DNA from: Coriobacteriales bacterium
Lineage (GTDB): Bacteria > Actinomycetota > Coriobacteriia > Coriobacteriales > UBA8131
Length of the DNA stretch: 64,000 nt
Direction: 5' to 3'
Assembly (NCBI GenBank): GCA_031282405.1
Contig: JAITDU010000045.1
Coordinates: 1-64,000, forward strand
The notes beneath the pieces were generated by a model. The model had not been told where the DNA came from and searched no databases. It saw only the letters and a list, made by a program, of their open reading frames with translations. This document shows, piece by piece, positions 10,466 through 63,367 of the stretch. The translations under genes and the position numbers were made by a program. The number at the start of each line of letters is the position of its first letter. The stretch's first letter is position 1.

Positions 10466-12274
10466 GTGGTCAACGGTTGTTTGAGTGCTGCTCCGCATAT
10501 TACGCAACGCTTTACTGCTGAGACCAGTGGCCTGTCGCTGAGCACGGTTGCCAGAACACATGCCAGACTGAACGCGCGCCAATTCCTGGATAAAAACGGC
10601 ATCACGATTCTGGGCAAAGCCGCCTTGGAGCCTTACAAGGTCGATAACGCCATTATCCTCGCGGCCGGCCTGGGTACGCGCCTTGTTCCCTTTACCTACC
10701 ACAGTCCCAAAGGACTCCTGCCGGTCAAAGGAACGTCGATGATTGAGCGGCAGATAGAACAACTGCGGGAGTGTGGCATCGAAGAGATACTCATCGTTGT
10801 TGGCTATCTCAAGAAGAAATTTGATTATCTGATAGATAAATATAATGTTCGCTTGCTATACAATCCTGAATACGCCACGAAGAATAACCTGACTAGCCTC
10901 TATTATGCCCGTCAGTATCTCAAAAACAGCTATGTGCTGGTTTCTGACAACTGGATAGAGCACAACATCTTTAACAGTCATGAGTATGACAGCTGGATTT
11001 GTGGCGTATATTATCAGGGAAAAACTAATGAATGGGCAACCACGACCGGGGCTCGCGATCGTATTCTGAGCTTGAAAATCGGCGGTGAGGATGTATGGGG
11101 ACTGATTGGCCCAGCGTATTTCTCCCGTGCTTACTCTGTCGAGTTTTGTACCTTACTGGAACGTTACTACCAGCGTCCCGAAACGGATGACTTTTATTTC
11201 GAGCATATTATCAGTGACAATCTAAAAACGTTGCCGATTAGCTTGAACCGTCAAAGCGCAGACAATGTCTACGAGTTTGAGAACCTGGAGGAGTTACGTG
11301 CTTTTGATGTGGATTACGGAAAAGATACCAATAACGAGGTGATGCAACAGATTGCCCAGATCTTTGGGGTGGAACAAAGCGCTATTGAGATTATCGGCCC
11401 ACTGAGGGAGGGGATGACCAACAACAGCTTCCTGTTTGTGGTTGACGGCGTGTCTTACGTGTTCAGAGTGCCGGGGCAGGGTACCGACAGGCTCATAGAC
11501 CGCCGAAGAGAAAAGCGTGCCTATGAGCTGGTGGCGCCCCTGGGCCTGACCGATGAGATAATCTTTTTTGACGACATGACCGGTGTCAAGGTATCGCGTT
11601 ATTATAAGGGTGCTCGCGTCGTCGACCCGGAAGATGATGCCCAGGTGGCCGAGGCAATGCAGCTGTTGAGGCAGATCCACACTACAGAGTCTGCCACCGC
11701 GCCCAAAGCCACACCACTCCGTTTTGATGTCAAACATGAAATCGCGTTTTATGAAAAACTGGCATCTGAGTTGAATGCCATCCACTATAGCGATTACGCA
11801 GAGATCCGTGCTAAAGCCAACGAGCTTTTAGATTTGCGCGAACACCTGGCAATCCCCGAGGTGCTTTGCCATATCGATTATGTCTATACCAACATACTCT
11901 ACCTGCCCGAAAGAATGTGCGTTATCGATTGGGAGTACTCTGGCTTTGCCGACCCCATAATCGATGTGGCCATGTTCGCCATCTATGCTTATTACAATCG
12001 TCAGCAGGCCGATCGAGCGCTTGTTTTGTACCTAGGTCGCGAACCAACGCGCCTGGAACAGACCCGCCTGTATATGTATATGGCACTTTGCGGTTTGCTC
12101 TGGAGTCTTTGGACCGAGTACAAGCAAGGACTGGGCGATGAATTTGGCGACTACTCACTCGTTCAATATCGTTATATGAATGACTTTTATCAGGTGATAA
12201 AAGACGAAGGCTATCTGGCCGAAGCGCGCGCATATCTGACCAGCCGTGATAAAGCACCGGAAAACTGTGGATAA
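10466..12274 (+). CDS. Second LicC-like nucleotidyltransferase / LicA-like kinase fusion
   Basis: Paralogue of the 7020-8894 gene. As it stands the frame begins at GTG 10466 and gives 602 aa: part of an HTH (GLSLSTVARTHARLNARQFL), the nucleotidyltransferase (NAIILAAGLGTRLVPFTYHS) and a kinase domain with CHIDYVYTNIL and VIDWEYSGF. The catalytic loop has H-I-D where the first copy has H-N-D. The frame is open for about 20 further codons before GTG 10466, back to the G tract, so the full protein probably begins at 10270 when the G run has 8 rather than 9 bases. No good ribosome site precedes GTG 10466. Its neighbours are EutH upstream and a LicB-like permease 50 bp downstream. Confidence 0.8.
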   Translation: MVNGCLSAAPHITQRFTAETSGLSLSTVARTHARLNARQFLDKNGITILGKAALEPYKVDNAIILAAGLGTRLVPFTYHSPKGLLPVKGTSMIERQIEQLRECGIEEILIVVGYLKKKFDYLIDKYNVRLLYNPEYATKNNLTSLYYARQYLKNSYVLVSDNWIEHNIFNSHEYDSWICGVYYQGKTNEWATTTGARDRILSLKIGGEDVWGLIGPAYFSRAYSVEFCTLLERYYQRPETDDFYFEHIISDNLKTLPISLNRQSADNVYEFENLEELRAFDVDYGKDTNNEVMQQIAQIFGVEQSAIEIIGPLREGMTNNSFLFVVDGVSYVFRVPGQGTDRLIDRRREKRAYELVAPLGLTDEIIFFDDMTGVKVSRYYKGARVVDPEDDAQVAEAMQLLRQIHTTESATAPKATPLRFDVKHEIAFYEKLASELNAIHYSDYAEIRAKANELLDLREHLAIPEVLCHIDYVYTNILYLPERMCVIDWEYSGFADPIIDVAMFAIYAYYNRQQADRALVLYLGREPTRLEQTRLYMYMALCGLLWSLWTEYKQGLGDEFGDYSLVQYRYMNDFYQVIKDEGYLAEARAYLTSRDKAPENCG

Positions 12275-55744: not shown

Positions 55745-55804
55745 TACGCTTGCGGCATCTGCAAGAAATCATTGCGAGACAAACAAGAGGGGAGAAGTAA
55801 CACT

Positions 55805-57928
55805 GTGCCGCATATGGTGGGAAAGCTGTCTGAGGACAGGCTGGCTCAAGGCAATTTTAAGGTTGTGGCACCCTTCGATACAGCCGGCGATCAGCAAACT
55901 GCCGTCGATTCTCTGGCCACCGGGCTTACCGATGGTCTGCGCTATCAGACGCTTTTAGGGGTGACGGGTTCCGGAAAGACCTTTACGATGGCTAAAGTTA
56001 TCGAAAAAGTACAGCGTCCAACCTTGGTGATGGCTCCCAACAAGACACTGGCTGCTCAACTTGCCGCCGAATTAAAAGAATTCTTTCCCCATAACGCTGT
56101 GTCCTATTTTGTCTCTTACTACGATTACTACCAGCCCGAAGCCTATGTGCCTACTACCGACACCTTCATTGAGAAAGATGCCTCTATCAACGAGGAAGTT
56201 GAGAAGTTGCGCCACGCCGCTACCGCAGCTCTGCTCTCGCGCCGTGACGTGATCGTTGTGGCCAGCGTGTCTTGTATTTACGGCATCGGTTCGCCGGCCG
56301 ATTACGCCGGTATGGCAGTATTTTTGGATCAAAGTGTGGCCATGAGCCGCGACGAGTTGATCTACGGGCTTATCGACATCCAATACGACCGTAATGACTA
56401 TGAGTTGCTGCGCGGTACATTCAGGGTGCGTGGCGATGCGGTGGATGTGTTTGCGCCTTATGCCGACAATCCGTTGCGCATAGATTTCTTTGGCGATGAG
56501 ATAGAACAGATACTGGAGGTGAACGCAGTTACCGGCGAGGTACTGAACAACTTCAACTCCATACCTATCTGGCCGGCTTCGCACTACGTGACCGCACGTC
56601 CTAAGCTGGAGCGCGCCGTCACCACTATTACAACCGAACTCGAACAGCGTCTGGCCGAGTTCAAGCGCGAGGGAAAATTACTGGAAGCCCAACGTCTGGA
56701 AATGCGCACGAACTACGATTTAGAGATGTTGACGACCATGGGTTTTTGTTCCGGCATTGAGAATTACTCGCGGCACTTGGATGGTCGCAATGCCGGTGAG
56801 CCACCGTTTTGCCTGATAGATTACTTCCCGAGTGATTTCTTTTGCATCATTGACGAGAGTCATGTAACGGTACCACAGATTCGCGGTATGCATGAGGGTG
56901 ACCGTTCGCGCAAGATCACCTTGGTTGAGCATGGTTTTAGACTACCGAGCGCTTTAGACAACCGGCCGCTCAACTTCAAGGAATTTGAACAGCATGTAAA
57001 TCAATTTGTCTACGTCAGTGCTACACCCGGCGACTATGAAGAACGGGTGAGTGACAAGCTCGTGGAACAAATCATCCGACCAACCGGCCTGTTGGACCCC
57101 GAAGTTATCGTACGTCCGATTACGGGCCAGATTGATGACATTGTCGACGAGGCCAAGCTGCGCATCGAGCGCCACGAGCGCGTTCTTATCACCACACTGA
57201 CCAAAAAAATGGCCGAGAATCTAACTGATCATCTGTTGGATCGAGGCATCAACGCGCGTTATATGCACTCTGATATAGCCACGTTGGAACGAGTGGAGAT
57301 ACTGCGCGACCTCAGACAAGGTAAATTTGACGTCCTTGTGGGAATAAACCTTCTACGTGAAGGTTTGGATTTACCCGAAGTCTCGCTCGTGGCTATTCTC
57401 GATGCCGACAAGGAGGGATTCTTGCGAAATCGCCGTTCGCTGATCCAAACCATCGGGCGTGCCGCGCGCAATGTCTCTGGTCAGGTAGTAATGTATGCTG
57501 ACAAGCTTACGGAGTCCATGCGTATAGCCATTGAGGAGACCCGTCGTCGTCGCGAATTGCAGATAGCCTATAACACCCAGATGGGCATTGAGCCACAAAC
57601 CGTCCGTAAGGCTATCAACGATATCATTGGATATCTTGAGGATGCAGCAACAGACGATGAGAAGGATAGGGACACTTTGGCCAGCGAGTTGGCAGGGCTA
57701 GGTAAAAAGGAGGCACTGCGTATAATCAGTTCCATCGAAGATGACATGGCATCAGCGGCAGCTAACATGGACTTTGAGGCGGCTGCACGACTGCGTGATC
57801 AAGCAGTACGACTCCGGGCAGCTATCGAGGGCAGTGATGAACGTGCTGTTCTTGATCGTCTGAAGCAGGGTGCTCGCAAGGGTAGTGCTCTTGGAGCACG
57901 TAAATCACGTTTCAAATCACGTAAATAA
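55805..57928 (+). CDS. uvrB: Excinuclease ABC subunit B
   Basis: 707 aa from GTG 55805 behind GAGGGGAG (ATG 55814 is an alternative). Typical Uvr[21 protein letters not shown], Walker [30 protein letters not shown]-type box [15 protein letters not shown], helicase motifs [14 protein letters not shown] and [12 protein letters not shown]. The C-terminal UVR domain is seen in [20 protein letters not shown]. It loads onto damaged DNA with UvrA and recruits UvrC. It follows coaE, as in other Actinobacteria, and ends immediately before the dif-like site. Confidence 0.96.
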
Positions 57929-57931
57929 ATT

Positions 57932-57959
57932 ACTTTACATAACATATATTATCAGAATA
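57932..57959 (+). other. dif-like site / attL of the filamentous prophage
   Basis: 28 bp with XerC/XerD-like layout: arm ACTTTACATAA (57932-57942), 6-bp centre CATATA, arm TTATCAGAATA. The left arm and centre resemble the reverse complement of known dif sites (for example the TTTACATAA half). The centre plus right arm (17 bp) recurs at 63194-63210. It is placed directly after uvrB at the left edge of the phage genes. Confidence 0.75.
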
Positions 57960-57979
57960 TGTTATGAATTTCTTATTTA

Positions 57980-58025
57980 GTAACATTATGTTACTTTATC
58001 TACTAGGCCATATAACCCCTAGTAG
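57980..58025. promoter_or_regulatory. Palindromic sequences before the first phage gene
   Basis: A 15-bp palindrome GTAACATTATGTTAC (57980-57994) and a hairpin CTACTAGG/CCTAGTAG (58000-58007 and 58018-58025) lie in the AT-rich 80 bp before the first phage gene. They could be operator, packaging or origin elements. Confidence 0.4.
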
Positions 58026-58037
58026 ATTGGATTTGAA

Positions 58038-58289
58038 ATGGTTTATTTACGCAATGAGCAGACAATGTACCTTGGTGAAAACACCTACACAATCGACGGT
58101 AAAGAGCTTACAACCTATGCTTTTTTGATTCCAAACATCGACAACAAACAGCCGTTAACTATTCGTGTATCTCCTGATCACGTTGATTATCTTCCACCAC
58201 TTTATGTAATGACAACCGCAGATTTTCATCTTTTTGTTGTGGGCAAGAATCTCAAACTCGAATTTTGCGTTGGTTCAGAAGCTGTTTGA
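58038..58289 (+). CDS. Small phage protein, possible ssDNA-binding protein (pV-like)
   Basis: 83 aa, strand-rich and without membrane segments (TMYLGENTYTIDGKELTTYAFLIPN, LTIRVSPDHVDYLPPLYVMT). Size, position as the first gene of the phage transcript and lack of hydrophobic helices suit the pV-type single-stranded DNA-binding protein of inoviruses. There is no sequence proof; the assignment is positional. Confidence 0.55.
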   Translation: MVYLRNEQTMYLGENTYTIDGKELTTYAFLIPNIDNKQPLTIRVSPDHVDYLPPLYVMTTADFHLFVVGKNLKLEFCVGSEAV

Positions 58290-58291
58290 TA

Positions 58292-58387
58292 ATGACTGCT
58301 GACGCTATCATAATATCAATTATACTTTGTGTTTTGCTGGGTTACTTGATCGGCAAAGATATCGTTGGCAGTTTTTTCGATGTCTGA
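58292..58387 (+). CDS. Tiny phage membrane protein
   Basis: 31 aa (MTADAIIISIILCVLLGYLI then GKDIVGSFFDV), one transmembrane helix. It begins two bases after the previous stop and overlaps the next start by eight bases. Small hydrophobic proteins of this size (pVII/pIX-like caps) are usual at this place in filamentous phages. Confidence 0.6.
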   Translation: MTADAIIISIILCVLLGYLIGKDIVGSFFDV

Positions 58388-58535
58388 TATTAGTATACTA
58401 GTGTATCCTCTTAGTGATGCGATTGGTTTTATTGCTTCCTCGGTCGTTATTGGTTTTATTCTAGGTGCTTTGATAGCGATGTTTTCAGCCTTTGCCCGCT
58501 GGCTCGTCTGGGTACTGAAAGGAGGTGAAAAATAA
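58380..58535 (+). CDS. Small phage membrane protein
   Basis: 51 aa. A short N-terminus, one long hydrophobic helix (AIGFIASSVVIGFILGALIA) and a Trp-rich, Lys-ended tail (WLVWVLKGGEK). Its last codons contain the ideal AAAGGAGGTGA ribosome site for the coat gene, whose ATG overlaps its TAA. Likely a minor structural protein at the particle tip. Confidence 0.6.
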   Translation: MSDISILVYPLSDAIGFIASSVVIGFILGALIAMFSAFARWLVWVLKGGEK

Positions 58536-58693
58536 TGTCAGATATCGTAAATGCTATGATTACTGGTTTTGGAACTGCGGCGACTTCGATAGTTTCGGGT
58601 ATTGTTTCGCTTTTGCCGATCGTTATTCCTATTGCTTCGGCCTTCGTTTTGATCAGTGTTGGCTATCGTGTGTTCAAACGATTTGCTCGATAG
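58535..58693 (+). CDS. Major coat protein (pVIII-like)
   Basis: 52 aa. Amphipathic N-terminus with one acidic residue (MSDIVNAMITGFGTAATSIV), a continuous hydrophobic helix (VSLLPIVIPIASAFVLISVG) and a basic C-terminus (YRVFKRFAR) that would face the DNA, the pVIII plan. The ribosome site is the strongest in the phage, matching a need for thousands of copies, and a terminator follows. There is no separate signal peptide, so the coat would insert unprocessed. Confidence 0.72.
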   Translation: MSDIVNAMITGFGTAATSIVSGIVSLLPIVIPIASAFVLISVGYRVFKRFAR

Positions 58694-58702
58694 GATGTTA
58701 TG

Positions 58703-58744
58703 ACCCCTTCTCTTCCCTATTGTTAGATAGAGACGAGAAGGGGT
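58703..58744 (+). terminator. Hairpin after the coat gene
   Basis: ACCCCTTCTC (58703-58712) pairs with GAGAAGGGGT (58735-58744) around a 22-nt loop. It separates the coat gene from the adhesin gene, the place of the central terminator in filamentous phages. Confidence 0.7.
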
Positions 58745-58757
58745 AGGCTTACAATTC

Positions 58758-58843
58758 AATTTTCCACAGCTTAAATTGTCACGTCCTTTTGAATACTCTT
58801 AATAGTATTCAAAAAATTAGCAGCGTGAACGCTGTGGAAAATT
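58758..58843. promoter_or_regulatory. Intergenic cruciform with inverted DnaA-box-like arms
   Basis: AATTTTCCACAGC (58758-58770) is the exact reverse complement of GCTGTGGAAAATT (58831-58843). Each arm holds TTTTCCACA, which fits the relaxed DnaA box TTWTNCACA. Within the loop is a second hairpin, TTGAATACT/AGTATTCAA. A run of T follows the right arm. Candidate origin or packaging structure of the phage, or a terminator. Confidence 0.55.
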
Positions 58844-58858
58844 TTTTTTGGAGTGGTT

Positions 58859-60712
58859 ATGATAAACCGTATTGCTATAGTACTTGCTACATGTATCTGC
58901 TTGTTTTTTTGCGTATCGCCGCAGGCGTATGCGGATGATACAAATCGAGGACAGTTTTACCGCACGTTTCTGAATGCATTTGGGATTACCGTTAATGCTG
59001 ATTATGATGATGCTGCTCTAGCTGCGGAGATTGATCCGTTTTTCAGCGATGTTTTAGGTGATATAGATGCCATTACCTCCCCGATCGACTGGAAGTGGCT
59101 GTCTGAACAGTCCTATTATCCGACATTGACTAACTACATAAGAATTTTATACGCTTCAAATGATGTCGATACCCATAATGGTATGCAGGGTCTGTATTGG
59201 TTTACAGAGTCATTTTCACAAGTAAACTCTAGCTTATATCCGAATGTCCAAACCGAATTTTTTGGTGTAACAGGTACCAATAAACCGATTTACGCAAATC
59301 CCGGCGTTGGTTCTAATCCGGTTTTCCATGAGTACGTTGTTTCATATCCGACTTGGACATCATTTTCTCCAAATTCTTTCCATGTTGATGGCATGCGTCG
59401 TTTTGGCTCCGAGGCTGGCTATTCTATTGTCAAAATTATGAACTTAGCAAATAGTCATACATACTTTACCCCACATACTTATTCCGGCTATTCGAAAAAT
59501 ATTATGACATATAATAATGATGGTGATTTAACTACGTTAGCAGGTGCTATCTATGTTGGCGAAGATGGATATTTTAAAGTTGATTTAATGCGTTGGCGTG
59601 ACGTTTCTTATTATTGGCTACACGGTTTTTCATATACTTATAATTTGACTTATCTTGGTGCGCCTGTGTTTTGTTATCGTCCTAGCAATATTGCCGAAGG
59701 CGGTTTTTATCCTTACTTGATTGATCCAGGTGCGATTACTATTATCGACGATTTATATACTGAAGAAGAAATCGAACGTATATATGTTGATTATGTTGAG
59801 TTACATGCGGATGAGCCGGCAGATCTTAATGCCGTACTTAAATACATGAGCCAATATGTGAACATTGATTTTAATAAGCTAGGTGGTTATAAGTCGAAGT
59901 CTTCCTCAGGTGCGAATAATGACCTAAATTATGGTATGGCGGGTTGGGGTTTTGGTGTTCGCGATTATAACGGCGGATATTCTCTATCGTACTATACAAG
60001 TATTATTTATGTTGTCGATAAAATTGAAGCATACATGTTAACTAATTCTGACCAAGACAATACACAAATTGAAATTGTCGCTACACGCATTGCTACCGGA
60101 TGGGATATTAAAGAATGGCTACCGTCTGAAGTGCCAAAGTATGTAATTTCGTGCAATTATGAGCTCGGGAAGTGGTACGAGAATCTTACTGCAGGCGAAG
60201 TAGTTGTTCTGTCTCGTAACGTTGAATTAATAGTTAGTGATATTGACGAACTATCTACCTACGGGGCTACCGAATTTATAGATTCTCTTGGTGGAACGAT
60301 TGTAAATTATGTTGAATGTAGCCTAGCTCTCAAAAGTGGCGGGTTTGATAGTACATTGCGCTATGATGATCCTGTTATCGCAGGCGGTGGCGATGGTGGT
60401 ACCGTTGGCGATGCTTATCAGGACGGCCGCATTGGCTCTGGTGTCGGCGCACGCCCTGAATTTGCACGCTATTTTCCGTTTTCGCTACCGTGGGATATAT
60501 CTGACTTGCTCCGTATTTTTGTTGCATCTCCCCGAGCTCCTGTTATTGATTTTCCTCTCGCTTCTCCTGATGGGAGTATCAAATATTTTCATATAGATTT
60601 TTCTTCCTATTCAACGTTATCGACGCTTATAAGAACGTTGCTATCAATTGTTTTCTTGATAAGTTTAGTTCGGTTGTACATGTCTATAACTGGCATTGCA
60701 AGCGGTGATTAA
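58859..60712 (+). CDS. pIII-like adsorption protein
   Basis: 617 aa. N-terminal signal peptide (IAIVLATCICLFFCVSPQAYA, cleavage before DD) and a C-terminal membrane anchor (TLLSIVFLISLVRLYMSI) enclose a large Tyr/Asn-rich extracellular region. A Gly-rich linker (AGGGDGGTVGDAYQDGRI) near residue 510 divides the N-terminal part from the anchor domain, as in pIII. It would bind the host receptor at the tip of the particle. ATG 58859 has GGAG five bases before it. No homology to a known receptor-binding fold can be claimed by eye. Confidence 0.75.
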   Translation: MINRIAIVLATCICLFFCVSPQAYADDTNRGQFYRTFLNAFGITVNADYDDAALAAEIDPFFSDVLGDIDAITSPIDWKWLSEQSYYPTLTNYIRILYASNDVDTHNGMQGLYWFTESFSQVNSSLYPNVQTEFFGVTGTNKPIYANPGVGSNPVFHEYVVSYPTWTSFSPNSFHVDGMRRFGSEAGYSIVKIMNLANSHTYFTPHTYSGYSKNIMTYNNDGDLTTLAGAIYVGEDGYFKVDLMRWRDVSYYWLHGFSYTYNLTYLGAPVFCYRPSNIAEGGFYPYLIDPGAITIIDDLYTEEEIERIYVDYVELHADEPADLNAVLKYMSQYVNIDFNKLGGYKSKSSSGANNDLNYGMAGWGFGVRDYNGGYSLSYYTSIIYVVDKIEAYMLTNSDQDNTQIEIVATRIATGWDIKEWLPSEVPKYVISCNYELGKWYENLTAGEVVVLSRNVELIVSDIDELSTYGATEFIDSLGGTIVNYVECSLALKSGGFDSTLRYDDPVIAGGGDGGTVGDAYQDGRIGSGVGARPEFARYFPFSLPWDISDLLRIFVASPRAPVIDFPLASPDGSIKYFHIDFSSYSTLSTLIRTLLSIVFLISLVRLYMSITGIASGD

Positions 60713-60965
60713 TTTGGAAATTTTTCAACCATTAATTGATGCTATTGCAGCTGCATTTGATTTTGTGATTAGTCTGCTGCCTCAGTCTCCCCTACTTACC
60801 CAGCAGTCTGGATTGAATTTATCGGCTGTCAGCCATTATCTTGGCTGGGTCAATTACTTTATCCCATTTGATATTTGTGTCGGGCTGTTTTCTGGCTGGC
60901 TATCTGTATTAGGTCTAACTCTTGTAGCACGTGCAATTTTGCGCTACTTCGGCTTTTTAGGCTAG
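60705..60965 (+). CDS. pVI-like minor coat protein
   Basis: 86 aa, GTG start overlapping the adhesin stop. Two hydrophobic segments (LIDAIAAAFDFVISLLPQ and FDICVGLFSGWLSVLGLTLVARAIL) and a position between pIII and the pI/Zot gene match pVI, which anchors pIII to the particle. Confidence 0.65.
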   Translation: MINLEIFQPLIDAIAAAFDFVISLLPQSPLLTQQSGLNLSAVSHYLGWVNYFIPFDICVGLFSGWLSVLGLTLVARAILRYFGFLG

Positions 60966-60970
60966 GCACC

Positions 60971-61822
60971 ATGATATATGCGTATACCGGTACTCCGGGG
61001 AGTGGTAAGACTTTAAGGGCGGTTAAAGAGCTAGTAAACTTTACTGGCAAGCGTGTTATTACCAATATTGCGCTTTCCGGCATTAATTACTTGCAGTTGC
61101 CTGATTCTGCCGATTTGCTAACTGAAATGTGTTTAGAAGTTTGTAGCCGTAAAGAAGCACAAACATTGGTTGTTATAGATGAAGCGCAAATGCTATTTAA
61201 CTGCCGTGATTGGAGCAATGCCAGCCGCTCGGGTTGGCTCAAGTTCTTTACCCATCATCGTAAATACGGCGCAAAAATAATCCTAGTTACTCAGTCATTA
61301 AGTTATCTCGATAAACAGATCCGTCAGCTTGTCGAGTACGAACATCGTTACCGCCGGCTATCTCGGTGGGGCTGGGTTGGCTTTGTTCTATATTTCCTGA
61401 CTTTTGGTGAGAAATATCTATATGTAGAATATTACGCTCCTGCTAATGAGCGTGTAAGTTTACATATTAGTATGATTGGTCGTAAGTATTATAAGTACTA
61501 TGATACTTTTGATATTCCGAATCGTGACCGTGAATCAGGAGACACAGCTGTTGTATCTCGCCTGGCTCCAGCAGGGTCTGAATGCCCTCTGGAGCCAGGC
61601 GATGACACGAATGTAGTACTTGATTATACAGTCACAACTCGCGAAAATGAGGTTGTATATGTATGTAAGCAGTGTAAAACTTTGTGGCAGTTTTTTGTCA
61701 GTTCGAAAGACAAGTTATATAGTATCATCGCTTATGCAAAAGGAAGGATTAGAAATGCCGAGTACGTTACACCCAAACGAGCTCAAGCCGAAGAGGACTA
61801 CTGGCGCGAAAACCTCAGTTAA
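60971..61822 (+). CDS. Zot/pI-type phage assembly ATPase
   Basis: 283 aa. Walker A YTGTPGSGKT (residues 6-14), Walker B LVVIDEAQMLFNCR (~67), then FFTHHRKYGAKIILVTQSLSYLDKQIRQL as in Zot. A transmembrane helix lies near WGWVGFVLYFLTFG (~133-146) with the remainder outside. Like pI of Ff phages it would drive assembly and extrusion through the envelope. The C-terminus contains a CKQC pair. ATG 60971 follows the pVI-like stop; the frame is open upstream but overlaps that gene. Confidence 0.88.
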   Translation: MIYAYTGTPGSGKTLRAVKELVNFTGKRVITNIALSGINYLQLPDSADLLTEMCLEVCSRKEAQTLVVIDEAQMLFNCRDWSNASRSGWLKFFTHHRKYGAKIILVTQSLSYLDKQIRQLVEYEHRYRRLSRWGWVGFVLYFLTFGEKYLYVEYYAPANERVSLHISMIGRKYYKYYDTFDIPNRDRESGDTAVVSRLAPAGSECPLEPGDDTNVVLDYTVTTRENEVVYVCKQCKTLWQFFVSSKDKLYSIIAYAKGRIRNAEYVTPKRAQAEEDYWRENLS

Positions 61823-62372
61823 CAACTCCCGTGTGCGTAATAATCTTATCTCGCTTGTACTCTCAAATTTATCGGACAAGGTCTATTTCTATACTTTCAC
61901 GTTTGCCGGTACTCCTTCAGACGGTGAATGCAGTCGCATGTTTACAAGATTTCTCAGATACAATCATATCGGTAAATATATTTATATATCTGAGTATCAA
62001 AAGCGAGGAATACTACACTACCATCTATTAAAGTTTAATGAACCAATACTAGCCGTCTGGGAACATGGTTACTATGAGTGTGTGGTAGTACCGTCCTGCG
62101 CTGATGCAGTTCAGACTTCTTTGTATCTTTGCAAATATTTGGTTAAAGATGGATATGTTGATCGGCCGGTTAATTCGAAAGCATATATCTGTTCTAAAGA
62201 TATTACACGACCTGTTGATGTGGATTTTACAACTGCAGTGGACGTTGAGGAACTCGGGTTAATTCCTCTGTACTATAGTGATAAAATTGTTGAAATACCT
62301 ACGCTTGATATACAGAAAGTGTCGCATGCAATTTATGATTTGGCTAATTTGACGGAGGTAAATAATGCCTAA
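61755..62372 (+). CDS. Rolling-circle replication protein (HUH)
   Basis: 205 aa from ATG 61755 behind AGGAAGGA, inside the end of the Zot gene in another frame. The HUH metal motif is HYHLLKF (~89-95), preceded by YIYISEYQKRGILHYH, and the nicking tyrosine region is SLYLCKYLVKDGYV (~122-135), Y-x-x-K-Y. This arrangement resembles Rep proteins of small ssDNA phages. It would nick the plus-strand origin and start rolling-circle synthesis. Confidence 0.82.
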   Translation: MPSTLHPNELKPKRTTGAKTSVNNSRVRNNLISLVLSNLSDKVYFYTFTFAGTPSDGECSRMFTRFLRYNHIGKYIYISEYQKRGILHYHLLKFNEPILAVWEHGYYECVVVPSCADAVQTSLYLCKYLVKDGYVDRPVNSKAYICSKDITRPVDVDFTTAVDVEELGLIPLYYSDKIVEIPTLDIQKVSHAIYDLANLTEVNNA

Positions 62373-62595
62373 ATTTTATTTAACAAAGTCACAACAGCGC
62401 CGTGCTCAAGCCATCGAGGAAGCGCGTAAAATTGCTAAGTTAACTGATGGAGAGGATTTGCCAAATATTGTAGTCACATATGATGTAAATCAGATAAAGA
62501 AGCGTTCCCGTAAAGGTTCTTTGGTTTCTCTTATCATATTTGGCATTTTGGTTGCTTTGTTCTTGTATGTAGTTTTGTACGGTGAGTTCCTTTGA
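62365..62595 (+). CDS. Small phage protein with C-terminal membrane helix
   Basis: 76 aa, start overlapping the Rep stop. A basic cytoplasmic part (KSQQRRAQAIEEARKIAKLT, QIKKRSRKGS) is followed by one transmembrane helix (LVSLIIFGILVALFLYVVLY). Unknown function. Confidence 0.65.
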   Translation: MPKFYLTKSQQRRAQAIEEARKIAKLTDGEDLPNIVVTYDVNQIKKRSRKGSLVSLIIFGILVALFLYVVLYGEFL

Positions 62596-62778
62596 TTCAT
62601 ACTGGCAAGATTTTTTAGTGTGAGGTGGAGCGGTTTTGCAGCTTGTTTTGGTGGTGATGGTGGTACCGTTAGCGATGCTTATCAGGATGGGTGATGCTTA
62701 TCAGGATGGCTGCAGTTCAAATTCTGTTCCCGTGAGAAGATAATATCATATAACTTCTCATGAGGTGTTACCACTTTA

Positions 62779-62805
62779 TACGCCGGCATGCTATCTACGC
62801 CGGCA
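62779..62805. promoter_or_regulatory. Two direct repeats TACGCCGGCA
   Basis: 10-bp direct repeats 17 bp apart, each containing the palindrome GCCGGC, directly upstream of the regulator promoter. They could be operators for the HTH protein or iterons. Confidence 0.45.
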
Positions 62806-62806
62806 A

Positions 62807-62835
62807 TTGTCATATATGTTAATATATATGATACT
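62807..62835 (+). promoter_or_regulatory. Promoter candidate for the phage regulator
   Basis: TTGTCA (62807-62812), exactly 17 bp, GATACT (62830-62835). Both match the sigma-A consensus at four or more positions. It starts 61 bases before the start of the HTH gene. Confidence 0.5.
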
Positions 62836-62895
62836 GATTAGGTTTGTTCCGTATTTGTGCTTATCCTGTTATCGCAGAGAGTTGAAAGGATTGCA

Positions 62896-63099
62896 ATGGA
62901 AATTCAAATCCGAATGGCTTTGGTTTATGCTGGTATTACTCAAAAGCAACTAGGCAAACAGTTGGGCATGTCTCTCCCCTCTTTCAACGCAAAGCTAAAA
63001 CGCGATACATGGACAGTTTCGGAATTGCAGCAGATTGCCAAGGCTTTGAATTGTGAGTTTGTCTCATTTTTTCGCTTCAAGGATGATAAAATTATTTAA
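62896..63099 (+). CDS. Phage HTH regulator
   Basis: 67 aa, ATG 62896 after GAAAGGA. The sequence QIRMALVYAGITQKQLGKQLGMSLPSFNAKLKRDTW is a Cro/CI-type helix-turn-helix with LSELQQIAKALNCEFVSFF-like third part (here VSELQQIAKALN). Size and position as the last phage gene suggest the repressor that keeps the integrated genome quiet. Confidence 0.8.
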   Translation: MEIQIRMALVYAGITQKQLGKQLGMSLPSFNAKLKRDTWTVSELQQIAKALNCEFVSFFRFKDDKII

Positions 63100-63182
63100 T
63101 ACCGTTTGCCGTTTTCTATGTTTTTCTTAAATTAATAGTTATGACTAGTTTTCAATATATATTGTTAAGATATTAATATAAA

Positions 63183-63210
63183 TATTAACATATCATATAT
63201 TATCAGAATA
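63183..63210 (+). other. dif-like site / attR of the filamentous prophage
   Basis: 28 bp: arm TATTAACATAT (63183-63193), centre CATATA, arm TTATCAGAATA. The centre and right arm are identical to attL (17 bp); the left arm differs at several positions and is presumably the phage-derived one. An AT-rich stretch precedes it. Confidence 0.72.
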
Positions 63211-63367
63211 GTGGGTTTGGTATTAAAAGGCTCATTACGGAGCACATAAGGCACTGTATACCGATTCGAGACCGTAGAAGCCTGCAGATGACGGCATAAT
63301 TGACAAAGTCTAAATATAAGACACGACAAGAACACCTTATTTCTCATATACTAGAATCGGAGTAATG

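What the first reader, a model, noticed from the sequence alone, without database searches (positions are those of the whole stretch)
57943..63210. A complete-looking inovirus in a Gram-positive Coriobacteriia-like host
The small genes between the dif-like sites carry Zot/pI motifs, a HUH Rep, a pVIII-like coat, and large signal-anchored pIII-like and pVI-like proteins, in the usual order of filamentous phages. Such phages are best known from Gram-negative hosts with an outer-membrane secretin; here no secretin (pIV) is encoded and the host should lack an outer membrane. The module seems intact and could be an undescribed Actinobacteria lineage. Function assignments of the tiny proteins are positional.
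Basis: partly seen in the sequence, partly recalled or inferred. Interest (0 to 1): 0.85.

Follow-up and report, generated by a model that had tools for sequence, protein, structure and literature searches.

The report
Filamentous-phage provirus at Coriobacteriales dif site
A complete-looking 5.3-kb filamentous-phage genome sits in the chromosome-dimer-resolution (dif) site of an uncultured Gram-positive bacterium; it is a divergent new member of a kind of phage already known from Gram-positive bacteria, not a new kind of system.

Summary
Between two dif-like sites (57932-57959 and 63183-63210) lie ten open, same-strand genes in the order ssDNA-binding-like, two tiny membrane proteins, major coat, pIII-like, pVI-like, Zot/pI ATPase, Rep, small membrane protein, HTH repressor. 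This matches Pf1 and the Gram-positive phage B5 in layout. Zot (85 bits against a cut-off of 20) and Rep (35 against 28) pass curated Pfam thresholds. Coat, pIII C-terminus and pVI have distant relatives in the same positions in dozens of inovirus loci. The insertion site is the chromosomal dif: a same-genus genome has an empty dif before the same flanking gene, and the GC skew flips there. No integrase is encoded, but host Xer recombinases are present. The genome has no secretin or Omp85. Novelty is limited: inoviruses of single-membrane hosts are published, and related proviruses, six flanked by dif-like repeats, exist in public Adlercreutzia and other Coriobacteriia genomes, although I found no paper describing them. 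One pattern may explain the missing secretin: nearly all of 160 relatives, this one and B5 have a short pI without the C-terminal membrane anchor and periplasmic domain seen in four diderm phages. Whether this provirus is active is untested.

The parts
57932..57959 (+). attL: ACTTTACATAA-CATATA-TTATCAGAATA, a complete dif-like Xer site, 3 bp after the uvrB stop codon
   Evidence: direct repeat D8/D4; left arm identical to the empty dif of same-genus genome G371
58038..58289 (+). g1, 83 aa, ssDNA-binding (pV)-like by position and size; all-beta in a moderate-confidence single-sequence model
   Evidence: AlphaFold pLDDT 68, six strands; no PDB fold match; family HMM built without it does not recover it: positional only
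58292..58387 (+). g2, 31 aa, one membrane segment, pVII/pIX-like by position
   Evidence: ORF and hydrophobic segment; same place as Pf1 orf30 and B5 Orf3/Orf4
58380..58535 (+). g3, 51 aa small membrane protein
   Evidence: ORF; position as Pf1 orf83
58535..58693 (+). g4, 52 aa major coat (pVIII-like), strong ribosome-binding site AGGAGGTG
   Evidence: tblastn to inovirus contigs E 1e-8; 39 of 44 loci collinear; PHROG 1646 major coat only at E 0.059
58694..58858 (.). structured intergenic region: terminator-like hairpin 58703-58744 and a long hairpin about 58758-58843 (candidate packaging signal or origin)
   Evidence: ssDNA fold -33.1 kcal/mol, z -7.1, 0 of 200 shuffles; Pf1 has an annotated terminator in the same gap
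58859..60712 (+). g5, 617 aa pIII-like adsorption protein: signal peptide ending QAYA, Gly-rich linker, C-terminal anchor
   Evidence: C-terminal ~100 aa match many inovirus loci (E to 1e-12), 88 of 101 collinear
60714..60965 (+). g6, 83 aa pVI-like minor coat, TTG start
   Evidence: tblastn E to 2e-10; 86 of 106 collinear just upstream of Zot
60971..61822 (+). g7, 283 aa Zot/pI assembly ATPase, Walker A GTPGSGKT, Walker B LVVIDEAQ; no membrane segment in the C-terminal tail
   Evidence: PF05707 85.2 bits; PHROG 197 and 1675 (M13 pI); PDB 2r2a; alignment A1; tail analysis
61755..62372 (+). g8, 205 aa HUH rolling-circle Rep, overlaps the Zot end
   Evidence: PF23343 35.2 bits against cut-off 27.8; PHROG 3419 E 1e-9
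62365..62595 (+). g9, 76 aa, C-terminal membrane segment, unknown role, overlaps the Rep end
   Evidence: ORF with strong ribosome-binding site; no family match
62896..63099 (+). g10, 67 aa Cro/C1-type HTH, likely phage repressor
   Evidence: PF13443 29.5 bits against 22; PHROG 4583 E 8e-12
63183..63210 (+). attR: TATTAACATAT-CATATA-TTATCAGAATA, dif-like with a divergent left arm (probably phage-derived)
   Evidence: direct repeat with attL; the DUF362-like host gene begins at 63365

Best explanation
A complete-looking provirus (57932-63210, 5.3 kb) of a filamentous phage (order Tubulavirales) that is divergent in sequence, integrated at the chromosomal dif site of a single-membrane Coriobacteriales bacterium. 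Shown by sequence: the gene set and order, the dif site, the absence of a phage integrase, and the absence of secretin and Omp85 in the genome. Inferred mechanism: host XerC/XerD recombine the phage attP with dif and leave a complete dif at attL. Rep nicks the double-stranded form for rolling-circle replication. The first-gene product coats the single strand. The Zot/pI ATPase assembles coat subunits around the DNA at the one cytoplasmic membrane and extrudes the virion without lysis, with pIII- and pVI-like proteins closing the end. No outer-membrane channel is needed, and the pI accordingly lacks the membrane-anchored periplasmic tail of diderm phages. The pIII-like protein binds a surface receptor, perhaps a type IV pilus. 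The HTH protein represses the provirus.
For: Family hits above curated cut-offs for Zot and Rep. Collinear relatives of coat, pIII C-terminus and pVI in dozens of loci. The same layout in Pf1 and B5 and in circular complete virome genomes. Empty dif before the same flanking gene in a same-genus genome. Dif-like pattern at one or two places in 14 of 25 genomes, with control hits in only one genome. Cumulative GC-skew maximum at 65141, next to the site. Other Coriobacteriia inoviruses flanked by dif-like repeats. Two XerC/D-type recombinases in the host. No secretin or Omp85 with working controls. T2SSF (pilus or secretion platform) present. Prophage GC 39% against about 52% for the contig.
Against: No excised circle, virion or reads were available, so activity is untested. 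attR differs from attL in the left arm. g1, g2, g3 and g9 are assigned by position only, and g1 is not recovered by a family HMM built without it. The host genome is a MAG, 88% complete, so absence of secretin is not absolute.
Confidence: 0.93

Rival explanations
1. A defective, domesticated or satellite inovirus remnant that is no longer able to excise or form virions.
For: attR has a diverged left arm. A scrambled duplicate of the pIII linker lies in noncoding DNA at 62650-62877, suggesting past rearrangement. No evidence of excision is available.
Against: All ten frames are open, with overlapping or closely spaced genes and ribosome-binding sites before several. Every core inovirus function has a candidate gene. 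Other proviruses show the same divergence of one att arm, e.g. L232 and L061.
Confidence: 0.25
2. A Zot-bearing mobile element that is not a phage (plasmid-like ATPase/Rep cassette).
For: Rep families of inoviruses are shared with plasmids; L061 has a plasmid Rep_OBD.
Against: Coat, pIII-like and pVI-like genes are present in canonical order and have collinear relatives in other inovirus loci; circular virome genomes annotated as Inoviridae share the layout.
Confidence: 0.03
3. The insertion site is not dif but an unrelated short repeat, with another integration mechanism.
For: XerC/D dependence is not tested; only sequence and position support dif.
Against: Empty orthologous dif before the same gene in the same genus, GC-skew flip, the pattern at one or two places per matching genome, the same site type in six Coriobacteriia proviruses, no integrase in the element.
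Confidence: 0.04

Closest known systems
Propionibacterium phage B5 (NC_003460, Paulinoviridae), from an actinobacterium
   Same: Gene order small-small-coat-pIII-pVI-pI-Rep; genome 5.8 kb; pI tail without a membrane segment; monoderm actinobacterial host
   Different: Almost no protein similarity (best: 36 aa of Zot, E 0.007); different Rep family (Rep_1)
Dulem virus 72 (PP511697) and bajarodino virus 9 (PQ006132), circular inovirus genomes from animal saliva and faeces
   Same: Closest complete annotated phages by Zot (39% and 30% identity), same gene order, 5.5-5.8 kb
   Different: Rep of Dulem 72 does not reach any Pfam cut-off, extra small genes; bajarodino 9 falls in the Coriobacteriia clade, to which this Zot's relation is unresolved
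Inovirus proviruses in Adlercreutzia, Eggerthellaceae and other Coriobacteriia (L038/L232, L048, L057, L061, L075, L089)
   Same: Same host order; six flanked by dif-like repeats 5.2-8.5 kb apart; L038 shares coat, pIII, pVI and Zot relatives in order
   Different: Zot about 35-43% identical; Rep modules swapped (CRESS-like in L232, Rep_OBD in L061); first-gene family not shared with g1 by sequence
Xer-exploiting filamentous phages of Gram-negatives (XacF1 type; PMC5666396)
   Same: Integration at dif without a phage integrase
   Different: Diderm hosts; the diderm pI proteins checked here carry a membrane segment plus periplasmic domain
Pseudomonas phage Pf1 and coliphage M13
   Same: Functional gene order; Pf1 also has a terminator between coat and pIII
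   Different: Larger pI (424 and 348 aa) with membrane segment and periplasmic tail; M13 also encodes the secretin pIV

Membership tests
Inoviruses (Tubulavirales) | pI/Zot assembly ATPase | tested here: met
   PF05707 85.2 bits against 20.3; invariant Walker motifs in A1
Inoviruses (Tubulavirales) | Small membrane-spanning major coat upstream of pIII | tested here: met
   g4: tblastn E 1e-8, 39 of 44 collinear
Inoviruses (Tubulavirales) | pIII- and pVI-like minor coat genes between coat and pI | tested here: met
   88 of 101 and 86 of 106 loci collinear
Inoviruses (Tubulavirales) | Rolling-circle Rep | tested here: met
   PF23343 above cut-off
Inoviruses (Tubulavirales) | Small compact genome, about 5-15 kb | tested here: met
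   5.25 kb between att sites
Inoviruses (Tubulavirales) | Circular ssDNA in a filamentous virion, extruded without lysis | not testable with these tools
   needs culture or virome reads
Xer/dif-exploiting phages | No own integrase or transposase | tested here: met
   no such family among the ten proteins
Xer/dif-exploiting phages | Insertion exactly at chromosomal dif | tested here: met
   empty dif in G371 before the same gene; skew flip
Xer/dif-exploiting phages | Host XerC and XerD present | tested here: met
   two recombinases above the PRK00283 cut-off, a little below the XerC and XerD equivalog cut-offs
Xer/dif-exploiting phages | Integration depends on XerC/XerD | not testable with these tools
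   needs deletion strains
Paulinoviridae (phage B5 family) | Sequence relationship of pI and other proteins to B5 | tested here: not met
   only a 36-aa match, E 0.007; B5 on an extremely long branch
Coriobacteriia inovirus clade (L038, L063, Adlercreutzia and others) | Zot monophyly with the clade | tested here: inconclusive
   free tree puts it outside; AU test does not reject inclusion, p 0.64
Single-membrane host | No secretin and no Omp85 | tested here: met
   no hits in own genome, controls ring in diderm genomes; genome 88% complete

The most novel reading that the evidence does not exclude
Inoviruses of single-membrane bacteria share a re-engineered extrusion machine: the pI ATPase has lost its membrane anchor and periplasmic domain and must be recruited to the cytoplasmic membrane by another phage protein (for example pVI-like g6 or tail-anchored g9). 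Coriobacteriia would host a coherent, undescribed lineage of such phages that exploit Xer/dif.
Probability: 0.35. Interest if true: 0.55.

Novelty: new member of a known kind. Interest (0 to 1): 0.36.

Why it matters
It adds an intact-looking, precisely bounded inovirus to a host family of Coriobacteriales in which the Zot search found no other, and shows that dif is a repeated landing site for these phages in Coriobacteriia, including culturable Adlercreutzia. The short-pI pattern offers a testable answer to how filamentous phages leave a cell that has no outer-membrane channel.

Tried and rejected
(1) g1 as a member of the first-gene family of Coriobacteriia inoviruses: an HMM seeded with g1 gave 8e-22, but that was circular; built without g1 it never recovers g1. 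Rejected as evidence. (2) g1 as a gpV fold: AlphaFold model all-beta but pLDDT 68 and no PDB match; M13 gpV only 2.6 bits. Inconclusive. (3) Query-specific patterns of this Zot in viral contigs: nothing; relatives appear only with the alignment. (4) Placement of this Zot: long branch, unresolved. (5) uvrB as the syntenic left flank: in the same-genus genome uvrB is followed by a glutamate-synthase-like gene and lies 6.8 kb from dif; the right flank (DUF362-like gene) is the conserved neighbour. (7) Papers: nothing on inoviruses in Adlercreutzia or Eggerthella, nor on dif-integrated inoviruses in Gram-positives, in the searched open-access library; this is not proof that none exists. Supplementary tables of PMC6813254, which may list Coriobacteriia detections, could not be read.

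Full report
What is there. The window is bases 1-64000 of a 131,310-bp contig of a 2.0-Mb genome assembly, 88% complete. Downstream of uvrB (55772-57928) and upstream of a DUF362-like gene (63365 on; named from my own reading of its sequence) lies a 5.25-kb insert bounded by a direct repeat: attL 57932-57959 ACTTTACATAACATATATTATCAGAATA and attR 63183-63210 TATTAACATATCATATATTATCAGAATA. The insert has 39% GC against about 52% around it. It carries ten same-strand genes. No tRNA lies at the ends.

Gene assignments. The Zot/pI ATPase (60971-61819) and the Rep (61755-62369) pass curated Pfam cut-offs and hit PHROG families including M13 pI and rolling-circle initiators. A profile of the Zot and 16 relatives matches PDB entry 2r2a. 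The coat, the C-terminal ~100 aa of the pIII-like protein and the pVI-like protein have no Pfam family. They do match inovirus loci by tblastn, and in 39 of 44, 88 of 101 and 86 of 106 loci respectively the match lies in the expected order before Zot. The pIII-like protein has a signal peptide (ending QAYA), a Gly-rich linker and a C-terminal anchor, by direct reading. g1, g2, g3 and g9 are assigned by position only. For g1 a leave-one-out HMM test was negative and the fold comparison inconclusive. The overall order equals that of Pf1 (ssDNA-binding, orf30, orf83, coat, terminator, pIII-like, pVI-like, pI, then a 430-aa gene in the place of Rep) and closely follows B5. The 58694-58858 gap is strongly structured as ssDNA (z -7.1): a terminator-like hairpin and a long hairpin that may be a packaging signal or origin (inference).

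Insertion at dif. In the only other genome of the genus seen in the collection (G371), ACTTTACATAACATGCATTATCAGAAAA lies about 175-200 bp before the matched start of the orthologue (83% identity) of the DUF362-like gene, with no phage there. The dif-like pattern occurs at one or two places in 14 of 25 genomes searched, and its reversed control only in one genome. Cumulative GC skew over the contig peaks at 65141, next to the insertion. The element encodes no recombinase, and the host has two XerC/D-type recombinases. attL has the chromosomal left arm and stays a complete dif; attR has a different left arm, which I infer to come from the phage. That dif stays intact when filamentous phages integrate is stated in PMC3025954.

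Relatives. Across 399 genomes of the order, 14 (this one included) have a Zot match at this sensitivity, eight of them among genomes at least 90% complete. The named collection gives 129 loci, mostly Lachnospiraceae and Oscillospiraceae, plus Adlercreutzia and other Coriobacteriia, and viral contigs give 172. Shared contigs (JAATFL010000010.1 'Coriobacteriia bacterium' and G359:C19, both 55864 bp; Adlercreutzia contigs likewise) identify the host order as Coriobacteriales. Six Coriobacteriia-type proviruses (L232/L038, L048, L057, L061, L075, L089) are flanked by dif-like repeats, and L232 sits before the same DUF362-like gene. A family member, G383, has a dif followed by a first-gene homologue at a contig end, probably another such phage. 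The other Coriobacteriia Zots form one group with 99% support. This Zot stands apart on a long branch, but an AU test does not reject its inclusion (p 0.64).

The missing secretin. The host genome has no secretin and no Omp85, with controls working, so a single-membrane envelope is the best reading. Four diderm pI proteins (M13 348 aa, PEar6 365, Pf1 424, Cf1c 388) have a membrane segment after the ATPase domain and a further 75-180 aa. Of 160 relatives of this Zot, the median length is 232 aa, four reach 320 aa and only four show a hydrophobic segment after residue 180. This protein (283 aa) and the distantly related B5 protein (308 aa) have none. I infer that the domain which in Ff phages meets the secretin is dispensable when there is no outer membrane. 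How the ATPase then reaches the membrane is open. The hydropathy measure is crude and the 160 relatives are not independent.

What is known. PMC6813254 associated two of six candidate inovirus families with diderm hosts and the other four with monoderm or wall-less hosts. PMC10061712 showed secretion of Enterocloster inoviruses and cites B5 and CAK1. I found no paper on inoviruses of Coriobacteriia or on dif-integrated inoviruses of Gram-positives, within an open-access library and without supplementary tables.

Verdict. A real, well-bounded, probably intact inovirus provirus, divergent in sequence but of a known kind. The interesting remainder is the repeated use of dif in Coriobacteriia and the short pI.

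Noticed in passing
window 62650-62714 and 62858-62877, compared with 60364-60431: Fragments of the pIII Gly-rich linker sequence (41 nt at 93%, 20 nt at 90%) are repeated in permuted order in noncoding DNA between g9 and the repressor, one part doubled in tandem; a possible relic of a pIII domain exchange or tandem-prophage recombination.
   Followed up: partly
L232:7229-8182 (same contig as L038): The dif-integrated Coriobacteriia inovirus encodes a CRESS-type Rep with Viral_Rep and RNA_helicase domains, like eukaryotic ssDNA viruses, instead of the REP_ORF2-G2P type seen in the window. PMC6813254 mentions a family of this kind.
   Followed up: partly
L231:4451-4914 (G383): A dif-like site followed by a homologue of the Coriobacteriia inovirus first gene at the contig end: probably a second inovirus in the window's host family, missed by the Zot search because the contig stops.
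   Followed up: partly
L057:3216-11726: The Adlercreutzia hattorii provirus has two dif-like repeats 8.5 kb apart plus a further half-site near 11650, which may be two elements in tandem at dif.
   Followed up: no
L057 and L096; L048 and L072: Adlercreutzia hattorii and A. mucosicola each carry two inovirus Zot loci; one of each pair is flanked by dif-like repeats and for the other no dif pair was found.
   Followed up: no
G000:C32:42032-43003: The host has a two-domain T2SSF (PilC-like) protein, so a type IV pilus or related machine could serve as phage receptor.
   Followed up: no
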